Virus record (IMG/VR): IMGVR_UViG_3300045974_001005
Location: 1-57,366 of that record
Direction: 5' to 3' (one strand)
DNA length: 57,366 nt
Origin: a virus
Of the stretch, positions 6,545-53,180 are shown in pieces. Both the position numbers and the translations under genes were made by a program. The notes under the pieces were generated by a model. That model was not told the DNA's origin. It saw only the letters and a list, made by a program, of their open reading frames with translations, and ran no database searches. Position 1 is the first letter of the stretch, and each line of letters starts with the position of its first letter.

Positions 6545-7702
6545 ATGACCGTTTTACATGTGCCACTGCTGGACGTGGTGCGCATCAATCCAGAGCCAGC
6601 CATGGATGGGCGAGTAGGCAAGGTGGCCTACATCAGCGCCGACCAGATCAAGCCCGATACGCTGGACGTACAAGCCGAAGTCCGGGCTGATATTGACCTG
6701 TCAGGCAAACCCGGCTGTTTTCAGGCAAACGATTTATTGCTGCCCGACCAATGGCGCAAACTGGCAGCGGGCGCGGTTTGCCAAGTTCATAGTGATCTGC
6801 CCCATGGCTACCATGACGGCGAGTTGCTGACACTGCGCGCCGATCCGCATCATTTGGACAATCGTCTTTTGTTGTACCTGTTACGCCAACCCGCGATGGC
6901 AGATCAAATCCGGGACTGGTATGCCAACCAGTCCAACAAAATAAGGAGGGTGGCGACATTTTTGCAGCAATTGCGCCTGCCGCTGCCACCGCTACGCACG
7001 CAAAGAGAGTGGCTGACGCAACTGAACCAGGCGTCAGAGCATTGCCAGCGGCAACAAGTGCAATGGCTGGCTTTGGATCAACGGCGTCGGCACCTGTTCA
7101 TGGATGTATTTGGCACAGCGGCACAGATGCAGCAACGGTGGCCTGCCGTGCCGCTGCCCAGCCTGCTGCATGGCTATCGGATGGGGGCGGAATCGACTTA
7201 TCGCGCCCTCTATCAAGGCCCGTTGATGATCCTGCCTGCCCACCTTGGTAGCCATCGTTTTAGCTGTGCCGATCCGGTTTTTCTGCACGAAGGGCGACCA
7301 CCACCCAGCAGCCTGCAAATATTCGCAGGGGACGTGCTGCTTGACACCGGCATCGGTACGGCGCATGCAACTGCGGTTCCCGCAGGGATACCAACCGCCT
7401 TTGCCGGGTCGGGCGTGGCCCTGATGCGGCCAAAACAGGTCGAGCCGGGTTTTCTGGCGGGCTACTTTTGCGCCGAGATCGCTGTCCAGGCGTTTGAAAA
7501 GCAAATCACGGATAAAAAACAGCAGGCGATCAAGCGTAGCAACCTGACGGCATTGTCGGTGCATTTGCCGCCTGCCGAATTGCAAAAGGTCTTTGTTGAA
7601 CAGAGCGCGGCCACTTTGCCCGAGATCGACGAAGCCGAGCGCCAATGGCGGCACGCCTGCAAACAGTTGGCGTTGCTGGCACGCCAGCTATTCGGCTCCT
7701 GA
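6545..7702 (+). CDS. HsdS-like DNA specificity subunit
   Basis: 385 residues. Two similar halves are visible, as in type I specificity subunits. The first target-recognition-like domain (about 1-140) is followed by the conserved region LPLPPLRTQRE (145-155) and a long helix (156-185). A second domain (about 195-345) ends in another LPP-containing segment and helix (360-385). AGGGG lies seven bases before the ATG. HsdS proteins bind a bipartite DNA site and dock two HsdM subunits. Here the three HsdM-like proteins upstream are the obvious partners. No HsdR is present, so classical restriction is not possible from this locus alone. Confidence 0.8.
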   Translation: MTVLHVPLLDVVRINPEPAMDGRVGKVAYISADQIKPDTLDVQAEVRADIDLSGKPGCFQANDLLLPDQWRKLAAGAVCQVHSDLPHGYHDGELLTLRADPHHLDNRLLLYLLRQPAMADQIRDWYANQSNKIRRVATFLQQLRLPLPPLRTQREWLTQLNQASEHCQRQQVQWLALDQRRRHLFMDVFGTAAQMQQRWPAVPLPSLLHGYRMGAESTYRALYQGPLMILPAHLGSHRFSCADPVFLHEGRPPPSSLQIFAGDVLLDTGIGTAHATAVPAGIPTAFAGSGVALMRPKQVEPGFLAGYFCAEIAVQAFEKQITDKKQQAIKRSNLTALSVHLPPAELQKVFVEQSAATLPEIDEAERQWRHACKQLALLARQLFGS

Positions 7703-49642: not shown

Positions 49643-49906
49643 TTACGCTGCCAATATTTCTCTGGCCAATTCCAGTGCGGTTTGGCCCAATTGCTGGCGC
49701 TGTTCGCGCCTGATTTTTGCCAGCCGGGCTTTTTCCTGCGCGAGGGCGACCTTGAACGCCTGGGTGGCTTGCCACCCTTCGCGCATGACTCTGGACTCCG
49801 CCGCGAACACGACGTGGGGCGGTGCGTTGGCCAAAAAACGCAATTCGCAGCAGGCCAGCCCCTTGGTCATTCGTCCGGCATTGATTTGGCAGTGCGCGCA
49901 TTTCAC
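49643..49906 (-). CDS. Small Cys-rich early protein
   Basis: 87 residues. It starts MKCAHCQ, with a second pair LACCEL near residue 18-20, so a small zinc site is possible. The C-terminal half is a basic helix (EKARLAKIRREQRQQLGQ). The ATG overlaps the P-like stop as ATGA. Possibly a replication or nuclease accessory factor. Family unknown. Confidence 0.6.
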   Translation of the reverse strand: MKCAHCQINAGRMTKGLACCELRFLANAPPHVVFAAESRVMREGWQATQAFKVALAQEKARLAKIRREQRQQLGQTALELAREILAA

Positions 49907-50613
49907 AGCGGCATCCCCAGCGCGGCTTTGGCCATTTCGACCACGGCCAAGGTGGTGTAGGCATCACCGCCTTGTTTCACGCGCTCCAAAATCTTGTGTG
50001 CCCAGCGGCGCTCGTCACGCGGTGCGCTGGCATGGGGCGAGCGGGTAATGCCCTGCGCACCCAATGCCTGCAACATGCGTGCGGCGTGGGCGTTGGTCTG
50101 GGGCGGTTTGGTTTCATGCGCGAGCGCCAATGCCGGTGTTGGAATCGGTTCCCACCGTTCTTGCGCCAACTGATGCGTCAGTTGCGCCTGCCAGCGCGGT
50201 TGCACTTGCGCCCAGGTCTGCGATTCCAGATCAAATGCCATCGGCGTTGCGGCCCAAAAGATGGCCGGATGCGACCATTGCCCCAGCTTGCCTTGCCGCC
50301 GTGCCTGCAAACCGCGAATGGCTTCGTAGTACGCGCTCAAGGCATTGAGCGGTGGTCGGCACATTTTTTTGAATTCCGGCAGAGAAGGAGGCCAGTCCCT
50401 GCCGGACAACCCCGTCACCCCGGTTTGAATTTCGCTTGGCGTGAATTCGCCCAGTTGGGTTGCCCAATGGGTGACCATGGTGCGGGCATCGACCTGGTCC
50501 CATTGGTCTACAAACTTCTTGCCATATTCCAATAACATCAAATCAAATAGTTCCTGTACCCACTTGTGTTTTTGTGGTGTGTCAATGCGCATTGCTGACG
50601 AATTGAAAGTCAT
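49903..50613 (-). CDS. Replication protein, lambda P-like helicase loader
   Basis: 236 residues. The middle segment FTPSEIQTGVTGLSGRDWPPSLPEFKKMCRP (about 57-87) is the signature of the phage P family, which recruits and opens the host DnaB helicase at the origin. The C-terminal half is a linker and helices. No Shine-Dalgarno is visible before the ATG. The gene begins exactly where a duplicated, iteron-bearing block ends. Confidence 0.75.
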   Translation of the reverse strand: MTFNSSAMRIDTPQKHKWVQELFDLMLLEYGKKFVDQWDQVDARTMVTHWATQLGEFTPSEIQTGVTGLSGRDWPPSLPEFKKMCRPPLNALSAYYEAIRGLQARRQGKLGQWSHPAIFWAATPMAFDLESQTWAQVQPRWQAQLTHQLAQERWEPIPTPALALAHETKPPQTNAHAARMLQALGAQGITRSPHASAPRDERRWAHKILERVKQGGDAYTTLAVVEMAKAALGMPL

Positions 50614-50781
50614 GGTGTGGTTCTCGCATTCATGGCTGGGTTAGTCGTGGCAAACCAATGGCCGCATCAATCGCTGCATCCGTCTTGCTTGGCAGCGAGA
50701 GGTCAGGCAATCGCTGTGCGATTGCATCTCTGCTCTATGCTGGTTATTGGTTTACCGTTCTTGGTTCTTGGTTCTTGGTTG

Positions 50782-50844
50782 GCATTGCGTTCGCATTGCG
50801 GGCGCATTGCGTCGGCATTGCGTTGGCATTGCGTCCGCATTGTC
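50782..50844. repeat. Iteron array 1: six GCATTGCG units, 11-bp period
   Basis: GCATTGCG (the last unit truncated to GCATTG) begins at 50782, 50793, 50804, 50815, 50826 and 50837, each exactly 11 bp apart. One turn of DNA per unit puts all sites on one face, as for an initiator protein. Confidence 0.8.
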
Positions 50845-51125
50845 AGCACCTTGCGCCAGGGTGGTACGGTAGTAAGTCAATCAACATCGAATCGAACCGT
50901 ACTCATTTGGCTTATGGTGGTGCGTCGATACGCTTTGCTGGCAGGTTGAGGGGCATGGTGTGGTTCTCGCATTCATGGCTGGGTCAGTCGTGGCAAATCA
51001 ATGGGCGCATTAATCGGTGCGCACCGTGGTGTCGGACAACGAGAGGTCAGGCAATCGCGGTGCGATTGCATCTCTGCTCTTTGCTGGTTCTTGGTTTACC
51101 GTTCTTGGTTCCTGGTTCCTGGTTG

Positions 51126-51188
51126 GCATTGCTGGTGCATTGCGTTGGCATTGCGTTGGCATTGCGTTCGCATTGCGACCGCATGGTC
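51126..51188. repeat. Iteron array 2: six GCATTGCG-type units, 11-bp period
   Basis: Units start at 51126, 51137, 51148, 51159, 51170 and 51181, again exactly 11 bp apart; some have one base changed (the second reads GCATTGCG, the first GCATTGCT, the last GCATGGTC). Same register as array 1 at +344 bp. Confidence 0.8.
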
Positions 51189-51199
51189 AGCGCGTTGCG

Positions 51200-52081
51200 C
51201 TAGTGCGGCATGTCATTTAAGTCAATCATCGTTGGCGTGGGGGCGTGCTGATTTCTGCCGGTCAGCGCATCAGCAAAGGCTTGCCGCCTCTCTTGATTGC
51301 TTTGGTACGCAGAAGGTGTGCGTACCGGTGGCGTACCGCGCTCGTTGCGTACCCAATTGCGCCAGGTGGCCGACCAATCGGCCTTTTTGCCAGTGACGCC
51401 AGGTTGAGCAATCCAATAGTCGCGGAATTGGCTGGCAACGGCCATCGGCTGCAAGTCCGGGCGGTGCGTGCGACAAAATGCGATATCGACATCGCTTGGT
51501 TGCCAGTCCGCTGGCAAGCGCGTGGCCTGTGATGCGTTGGCATCGGCATTCCTTTCTGACCGGGATGCGGATACAGCGCGCTTGCCTGGTTTGCTGGCCG
51601 CATCGGTGGCCGCATCGGTGGCCGCATCGGCGGCAGCGTTGGTGGCCGAGCCGCTGGCAGATTTGGTAGCGCGGGGCGAAACGCCTTCCCGGATCGGTTC
51701 GGACTGGCGTGGTGCGTCTGGTTTGGATGGGCGGCGGCGGGGTGCGGCATCCTGCTGATCGGTTTTTTGCCAGCGCCGATTGGCCGCTTCGGTCGATTTC
51801 GCGCTTTTTTCTTTGAATGCCGTGATGTCTTGCTCACAGCGGGTATGTCGCCATCCGCTATCCGAGCGGGTGAAGAACTCGTTCAGCATGGTACGCACTG
51901 CATTGCGCTCATCGTCGGTATGCACCCGCATGACGCGAAACAGCATGGCTTCATCCAGGCACAACGGTAATTCGGTCGCATAGTAGCGATCCATCAAGCG
52001 CCGATAAATGCCGTCTTCGAGGGCCGATAAATGGGCGGTGGCAATCAGGTGGTCGCCAATATGGTGTTGGTAGTAGTTCAT
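51200..52081 (-). CDS. DUF1376/YdaU-like protein with DnaT-like C-terminus
   Basis: 293 residues. The N-terminal 90 residues (MNYYQHHIGDHLIATAHLS, then EDGIYRRLMDRYY) are DUF1376, a winged-helix of phage replication proteins. Residues 95-185 are a disordered Ala/Lys/Arg linker containing a short Ala-Ala-Thr-Asp repeat (12-bp DNA repeats near 51600). Residues 190-255 (ADWQPSDVDIAFCRTH, then DYWIAQPGVTGKKADW) match the DnaT-like C-terminal domain that engages single-stranded DNA and primosome. A lambda O-like initiator role at the neighbouring iterons is likely. Confidence 0.8.
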   Translation of the reverse strand: MNYYQHHIGDHLIATAHLSALEDGIYRRLMDRYYATELPLCLDEAMLFRVMRVHTDDERNAVRTMLNEFFTRSDSGWRHTRCEQDITAFKEKSAKSTEAANRRWQKTDQQDAAPRRRPSKPDAPRQSEPIREGVSPRATKSASGSATNAAADAATDAATDAASKPGKRAVSASRSERNADANASQATRLPADWQPSDVDIAFCRTHRPDLQPMAVASQFRDYWIAQPGVTGKKADWSATWRNWVRNERGTPPVRTPSAYQSNQERRQAFADALTGRNQHAPTPTMIDLNDMPH

Positions 52082-52140: not shown

Positions 52141-53106
52141 TCATTCGCATAAGCCATAGCTGGATGAGCAAGCGCTGGCATCATGCAAGGCGGTGAGTAA
52201 AGAAAATTGCCTGCCGCCATGCGCGGTTTGCGACCAGCGCACCATTTGATGGATATTGGCTTTGGCAAAAATGGCTTGATCGGTGTCGCCATCGCGGGTT
52301 TCGCCCGGCCCTTTGTGCAACATGGTGGAATAGCCGCGCTTGGCGGCGCTGGAGACAAGACGTTCCCAGGCCGCAATGCGGGCAATGTGCTCTGGAAAGC
52401 GCAACCCGATTTCCTTGAGTTCGCCTTTGCTGACATTGACGCAGGGCATACAACCGACCCGCGACATGCCTTGCCGATAAAGTGGATTGGGTTCAATTCC
52501 ACACGTCTTGCACCAAGCGAACACCTCCTGCGCCGACCAATCAACCAGTGGCCGATAGACATGCAAGCCCGCGCCCAGGTATTCATAGCGCTTGGCGGCG
52601 CGGCGGCTAATGGATTCATCGCGGCGCACCCCTTGCCAACTGACCACCGTATAACCGGCATCAACCAGGGACAATTGATACTGGACGGCCAAATCGCGTT
52701 TCAGGTGCTGGGTACAGAATTGCGCCATGCGACTTGGGAAGCGGCCTTTCCATAAACAGACATCCAGAAATGGAATCCCGGTGGGGTGCAAGATTGCCAA
52801 TGCGCGCCGCTTCGCTTTGTTGCTCCAGCGCAGGCGACGGCCATTGACGCGCTGGTGGCGGTTATCGCGTGCGATGAACATCCGCTTGGCGGCGATCTCT
52901 GCCGAAAAGTCGGCCTTTAATCGGACAATCGTGATGCCTGTCGCCGCTTCAAGATAGTCGAGGTAGTCGTACACCGCCACATGTTCATTGCCAGTGTCGC
53001 AAAAGATGGCGCGTACCCGGTGCTTGCCAAAGCGGGCAATCGCCAGCAACAAGGTGGCGGCGCTGTCTTTGCCGCCAGAAACCGATACAACGTGAACAAT
53101 ACTCAA
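52141..53106 (-). CDS. PAPS reductase-family (ATP pyrophosphatase) protein
   Basis: 321 residues from a TTG at 53106 with GGGAG five bases upstream; another TTG lies four codons earlier. The PP-loop SGGKDSAAT follows within 15 residues. Later conserved segments are IFCDTGNEH and a putative zinc site made of CKTCG and GCMPC (about 200-225). The family uses ATP to activate phosphosulfate or thiolation chemistry; phage members may take part in sulfur modification of nucleic acids or sulfate metabolism. It follows cro after a terminator, in the early operon. Substrate unknown. Confidence 0.8.
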   Translation of the reverse strand: MSIVHVVSVSGGKDSAATLLLAIARFGKHRVRAIFCDTGNEHVAVYDYLDYLEAATGITIVRLKADFSAEIAAKRMFIARDNRHQRVNGRRLRWSNKAKRRALAILHPTGIPFLDVCLWKGRFPSRMAQFCTQHLKRDLAVQYQLSLVDAGYTVVSWQGVRRDESISRRAAKRYEYLGAGLHVYRPLVDWSAQEVFAWCKTCGIEPNPLYRQGMSRVGCMPCVNVSKGELKEIGLRFPEHIARIAAWERLVSSAAKRGYSTMLHKGPGETRDGDTDQAIFAKANIHQMVRWSQTAHGGRQFSLLTALHDASACSSSYGLCE

Positions 53107-53180
53107 AGCGACTCCCAAATTTTGGGTAATGGAATCCCCTTGGCAATCGGGTTGCCAATCTCATGTCAAACAAGGGGAGG

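What the first reader, a model, noticed from the sequence alone, without database searches (positions are those of the whole stretch)
50611..51228. Duplicated iteron blocks with exact 11-bp phasing: probable replication origin
Twelve GCATTGCG-type units in two arrays of six, each in perfect helical phase, with a conserved hairpin whose loop alone varies, lie between a DnaT/DUF1376-like and a P-like gene. The block was duplicated with its start codon, leaving a 14-codon relic ORF behind one copy.
Basis: partly seen in the sequence, partly recalled or inferred. Interest (0 to 1): 0.75.

Follow-up and report, generated by a model that had tools for sequence, protein, structure and literature searches.

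The report
Relocated, duplicated phage replication origin
A bacterial virus carries two side-by-side copies of what is very probably its DNA start-of-copying signal, in a gap between two replication genes; in relatives the same signal is hidden inside the neighbouring DUF1376 gene, which points to what that 'unknown function' protein family does.

Summary
On the minus strand, two arrays of six 11-bp units (GCAATGC+4) and a 19-bp hairpin lie between a DUF1376/DnaT-like gene and a P-like helicase-loader gene. They form two tandem ~343-bp copies (82% identical) and leave a 14-codon relic of the loader gene.

Each array is followed by a 7-bp tract (AACCAAG/AACCAAT). The same composite, 11-bp iterons then 7-bp tract, sits inside the DUF1376 gene of many phages, in the linker after the N-terminal domain. 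A DNA-only motif scan gave 119 viral loci, 110 of them in that spot. Synonymous-codon resampling shows selection on DNA. Iteron sequence tracks the residues ending the DUF1376 domain: GCAATGC iterons in 34/47 'RW'-type genes, 0/95 others. The window protein is RW-type but its own linker has lost the array; the matching signals lie outside the gene, twice. Between copies the GCAATGC cores differ at 1/42 bases, the spacers at 10/24.

Best reading: a lambda-O-type origin moved out of its initiator gene and duplicated. Origin activity is untested. I found no paper linking DUF1376 to an origin.

The parts
51200..52081 (-). DUF1376 gene, proposed origin-binding initiator (293 aa): N-domain 1-112, disordered linker about 113-180, DnaT-like domain about 184-250
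   Evidence: Pfam DUF1376 97.7 bits over a cut-off of 30.1; DnaT below cut-off; phrog_3992 primosomal protein; AF2 model
51533..51745 (-). Linker segment of the DUF1376 gene, where relatives carry the origin; here without an iteron array or 7-bp array
   Evidence: 0 iteron words and 2 scattered AACCAxx words
51126..51187 (-). Iteron array, copy next to the DUF1376 gene: six 11-bp units GCAATGC+4 (the first a variant, ACCATGC)
51084..51124 (-). 7-bp tract of that copy (AACCAGGAACCAGGAACCAAGAACGGTAAACCAAGAACCAG), proposed melting site
   Evidence: sequence; same tract in other phages
51051..51069 (.). Hairpin GCAATCGC-GGT-GCGATTGC
50912..50956 (-). Relic start of the P-like gene (14 codons and stop)
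50873..50884 (-). Relic of the 3' end of the DUF1376 gene, near the duplication joint
50782..50843 (-). Iteron array, copy next to the P-like gene: six 11-bp units (the first a variant, ACAATGC)
50740..50780 (-). 7-bp tract of that copy (AACCAAGAACCAAGAACCAAGAACGGTAAACCAATAACCAG)
50707..50725 (.). Hairpin GCAATCGC-TGT-GCGATTGC
49903..50613 (-). P-like helicase loader gene (236 aa)
   Evidence: phrog_109, E 6e-15; no Pfam family

Best explanation
It is a theta-type phage replication origin of the lambda O/P kind, present twice. The DUF1376 protein (51200-52081) binds the GCAATGC core of the six 11-bp iterons through its N-terminal domain and the basic end of its last helix. The roughly helically spaced array assembles a nucleoprotein complex that melts the adjacent G-poor 7-bp AACCAAG/AACCAAT tract. 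The DnaT-like C-terminal domain and the P-like loader then bring in the host helicase. In relatives this origin lies inside the DUF1376 gene, in the segment coding the disordered linker. In this phage it is intergenic and a tandem duplication has doubled it. Shown here: the repeats, their duplication, DNA-level selection in relatives, matching of iteron class to protein class, and absence of the array from the window's own linker. Inferred: initiator binding, melting at the tract, helicase loading, origin activity, and that relocation preceded duplication.
For: Same composite inside DUF1376 genes of Acinetobacter, Thalassomonas, Vibrio and Paracoccus phages. Synonymous resampling: iteron words 94 observed against 14.5 +/- 3.1; tract words 428 against 134 +/- 9. 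Iteron class follows the residues ending the DUF1376 domain: 34/47 RW against 0/95, Fisher 2e-22, not corrected for kinship; all four main classes have period 11 then 7. Window protein is RW class with its array outside the gene. Between copies the cores differ at 1/42 bases, spacers at 10/24, p 8e-5. P-like loader downstream. Model: N-domain near winged-helix initiators (4pt7 Z 5.3), C-domain near DnaT bound to ssDNA (4ou6 Z 5.8).
Against: No experiment. Structure matches are weak (all Z under 8). In relatives iterons and class residues are neighbours in the gene, so their match may be joint inheritance; the tree gives too few supported independent pairs to test it (5); the window is one unlinked case. 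Classes other than RW were defined after seeing the data. 13 of 47 RW genes lack clear iterons in the linker. GC skew does not turn at the locus. The hairpin was not found in relatives.
Confidence: 0.85

Rival explanations
1. The arrays are operators: a phage regulator, perhaps the DUF1376 protein itself, binds them to control the P-like gene, without origin function.
For: They lie just upstream of the P-like gene, and the duplication doubled its leader.
Against: In relatives the same composite lies inside the DUF1376 gene, away from any promoter, with a constant 7-bp tract; no sigma-70-like promoter in the region; genes named primosomal or helicase adjoin.
Confidence: 0.07
2. The origin is real but only one of the two copies works; the other is a decaying by-product of duplication.
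For: One copy suffices in all relatives; no double junction in 119 loci.
Against: Both copies keep iteron cores, tract and hairpin while spacers and relic coding parts have diverged.
Confidence: 0.3
3. The repeats are a leftover of protein-coding low-complexity linker (RNANAM..NQEPRTKNQEP) with no DNA role.
For: In relatives the repeats are translated; the block may derive from such a gene segment.
Against: Period 11 is not a multiple of 3; synonymous resampling rejects it; in the window the block is not coding, yet its cores are conserved between copies.
Confidence: 0.02
4. It is a packaging, recombination or integration site.
For: Short repeats also occur at such sites; L382 has the composite just before terminase-like genes.
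Against: Location next to the helicase loader and, in relatives, inside the primosomal gene.
Confidence: 0.03

Closest known systems
[quoted passage not shown]
   Same: Iteron array (4 in lambda, 6 in Stx phages; 6 per copy here) beside a tract thought to melt; initiator gene next to a P-like loader; in relatives of this phage the array is inside the initiator gene.
   Different: DUF1376/DnaT-like protein instead of O; other iteron sequence at 11-bp period; 7-bp repeats instead of an AT-rich tract; here outside the gene and duplicated.
Gene-embedded composite of DUF1376 genes, e.g. Acinetobacter phage phiAC-1 (L130), Vibrio phage 1.052.A (L137), Paracoccus phage Pkon1 (L133)
   Same: GCAATGC-type iterons followed by 7-bp-type repeats in the same order; blastn 77% over the two pieces for phiAC-1.
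   Different: Single and inside the gene; annotated only as hypothetical or primosomal protein, not as an origin.
Iteron plasmid origins with winged-helix Rep initiators
   Same: Directly repeated initiator sites in a noncoding region; winged-helix-like initiator domain (weak structural match).
   Different: No Rep family match by sequence; DnaT-like C-domain and P-like loader instead.

Membership tests
Lambda-type phage origin | Array of directly repeated initiator sites | tested here: met
   Two arrays of six 11-bp units
Lambda-type phage origin | Adjacent easily melted tract | tested here: inconclusive
   41-bp 7-bp-repeat tract, about 41% GC in a 56% GC window and nearly free of G on one strand; melting not testable
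Lambda-type phage origin | Lies inside the initiator gene | tested here: not met
   Intergenic here; inside the gene in relatives
Lambda-type phage origin | Helicase loader (P) gene alongside | tested here: met
   phrog_109
Lambda-type phage origin | O-type initiator by sequence | tested here: not met
   DUF1376 and DnaT-like domains, no O family match
Lambda-type phage origin | Initiator binding and autonomous replication | not testable with these tools
   Needs cloning and binding assays
DUF1376-gene origin family (described here) | 11-bp iterons followed by 7-bp AACCA-type tract | tested here: met
DUF1376-gene origin family (described here) | Iteron class matches the residues ending the DUF1376 domain | tested here: met
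   RW-type protein, GCAATGC iterons
DUF1376-gene origin family (described here) | Located in the linker of the gene | tested here: not met
   Array and tract are outside the gene
DUF1376 (PF07120) | Over the curated cut-off | tested here: met
   97.7 bits against 30.1
DnaT DNA-binding domain (PF17948) | Over the curated cut-off | tested here: not met
   17.8 bits against 25; structural match to DnaT 4ou6 at Z 5.8
P-like helicase loader (phrog_109) | Profile match over most of the protein | tested here: met
   E 6.4e-15, residues 12-186

The most novel reading that the evidence does not exclude
DUF1376 proteins are the origin-binding initiators of a large, unrecognised group of phages with a readable specificity code: residues at the end of the DUF1376 domain choose among several 11-bp iteron classes, while a shared 7-bp tract is the melting site. 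This window is a natural separation of the origin from its coding gene, which shows the signal is DNA, and it carries two intact origins.
Probability: 0.6. Interest if true: 0.75.

Novelty: new variant of a known kind. Interest (0 to 1): 0.62.

Why it matters
It gives a concrete, testable function (origin recognition) to a protein family still named 'unknown function' and common in phages of Proteobacteria. It shows where their origins lie and suggests how iteron specificity is set. The displaced, doubled origin separates DNA signal from protein coding, which in lambda-like phages are normally entangled.

Tried and rejected
Repeat as host element: the junction motif had 0 hits in 369 bacterial genomes of one class; plasmid hits by blastn were only short 7-bp-repeat matches. 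RNA element: the only Rfam hit (mir-33, 25.1 bits) is half its gathering score, chance. Terminator or promoter: no promoter-like site, and no clear terminator at the hairpin. GC skew: no turn at the locus. Exact hairpin pattern elsewhere in viral contigs: none, so the hairpin is not part of the shared origin. Literature: no paper holds DUF1376 with 'origin of replication'; none prints the iteron. PDB sequence search with the profile: no hit; Foldseek had no match at E under 0.001. Other window-like cases: no intergenic array among the other 47 RW genes, no double junction in 119 loci. L328, L316, L391 and L406 matched the junction motif and look like chance.

Full report
The window is a 57,366-base virus record.

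Observation. Two arrays of six units spaced exactly 11 bp were confirmed. On the coding (minus) strand the constant part is GCAATGC followed by 4 variable bases. In simulations of the window no 7-mer ran more than twice at period 11; here it runs five times. The phased pair occurs nowhere else in the window. The arrays belong to two direct copies about 343 bp apart, 82% identical. The duplicated unit runs from the 3' end of the DUF1376 gene, across the intergenic region, to about codon 30 of the P-like gene; it left a 14-codon relic of the P-like gene and a short relic of the DUF1376 end. The hairpin arms are identical in both copies and the loop differs.

Beside each array is a 41-bp tract of 7-bp repeats (AACCAAG/AACCAAT). 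A blastn search with the block hit the inside of DUF1376 or 'primosomal' genes in Acinetobacter, Thalassomonas, Vibrio and Paracoccus phages. Several of those genes show the same order, GCAATGC-type iterons then AACCA-type repeats, in the linker after the DUF1376 domain; others show the tract with another iteron type or none clear.

How general it is. Loci were gathered by protein similarity, not by the repeat. Among 142 distinct linkers besides the window's, four main classes of residues end the DUF1376 domain, and each has its own iteron sequence. GCAATGC iterons are in 34 of 47 RW-class genes and 0 of 95 others. All four classes show an 11-bp period before the tract and a 7-bp period in it. 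The AACCA tract follows the DUF1376 domain rather than the DnaT-like domain: at least two words in 89 of 142 genes with DUF1376, 3 of 56 genes with only the C-domain. 110 lie in a DUF1376 gene just after its N-domain. Of the other nine, four read like fragments of such genes (L309, L314, L364, L368), one (L382) is an intergenic composite, and four look like chance. The same motif is absent from 369 bacterial genomes of one class.

DNA, not protein. An 11-bp period cannot be a codon repeat, and resampling synonymous codons gives far fewer iteron words (14.5 +/- 3.1 against 94) and tract words (134 +/- 9 against 428). The window is the cleanest case, since its copies are not in a long reading frame on that strand. 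Between the two copies the iteron cores differ at 1 of 42 positions and the spacers at 10 of 24 (Fisher 8e-5), so both copies look to have been kept by selection.

The window as exception. Its DUF1376 protein has the RW-class motif (AANRRW), which predicts GCAATGC iterons. Its own linker holds none and no 7-bp array, only two scattered AACCAxx words. The predicted iterons are outside the gene, twice. In relatives iterons and class residues are neighbours in the gene, so joint inheritance could explain the match; here they are several hundred bases apart. That is one case only. The tree of the short N-domain has too few supported independent pairs for a formal test.

Mechanism. The AF2 model has a confident domain 1-112 whose long last helix (80-112) carries the class residues, a disordered linker, and a second domain about 184-250. 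Structural comparison, at modest Z, links the first to winged-helix proteins including plasmid Rep initiators and the second to the ssDNA-binding part of DnaT. By analogy with lambda, where iterons and an AT-rich tract lie in the O gene (PMC7466680), I propose that DUF1376 binds the iterons, the tract melts, and the DnaT-like domain with the P-like loader brings the helicase. None of these steps was tested.

Known or new. A search of open papers found nothing joining DUF1376 with an origin, and no paper printing the iteron. The kind (iterons plus tract beside a P-like gene) is known from lambda. The family, its class code and the relocated duplicate appear undescribed in what could be searched; most subscription papers and all bioRxiv preprints are not held.

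Noticed in passing
L017, L025, L027, L155, L159 and others with only the DnaT-like C-domain: Initiators with a different N-domain but the same C-domain carry an analogous layout before it: other repeats (e.g. AGTAACGTGAC) then purine-rich short tandem tracts (AGAGAAGAGAAG), suggesting swappable N-domain/origin modules.
   Followed up: partly
L382 about 7010-7190 (minus strand): An intergenic GCAATGC plus AACCATA composite outside any long frame, just before terminase-like genes, on an 18-kb fragment in which no DUF1376 gene was found.
   Followed up: partly
51598-51640: The window's DUF1376 linker holds an in-frame 12-bp repeat (GATGCGGCCACC) coding an Ala/Asp/Thr-rich stretch, where relatives keep their origin.
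   Followed up: no
52141-53118: A phage phosphoadenosine phosphosulfate reductase-like gene (PF01507, phrog_424) follows the replication block.
   Followed up: no
L014 653-750, L015, L018, L019, L021: GGGTGTC repeats mostly at 22-bp spacing in the linker of initiators of another N-domain type, a likely further iteron class.
   Followed up: no
L089-L129: The plain GCATTGCG-N3 triple-repeat scan also hit genes where my ten-sequence DUF1376 search found nothing (e.g. L097, L117, L128), with tracts such as CTATAAAGGAAAGG.
   Followed up: no
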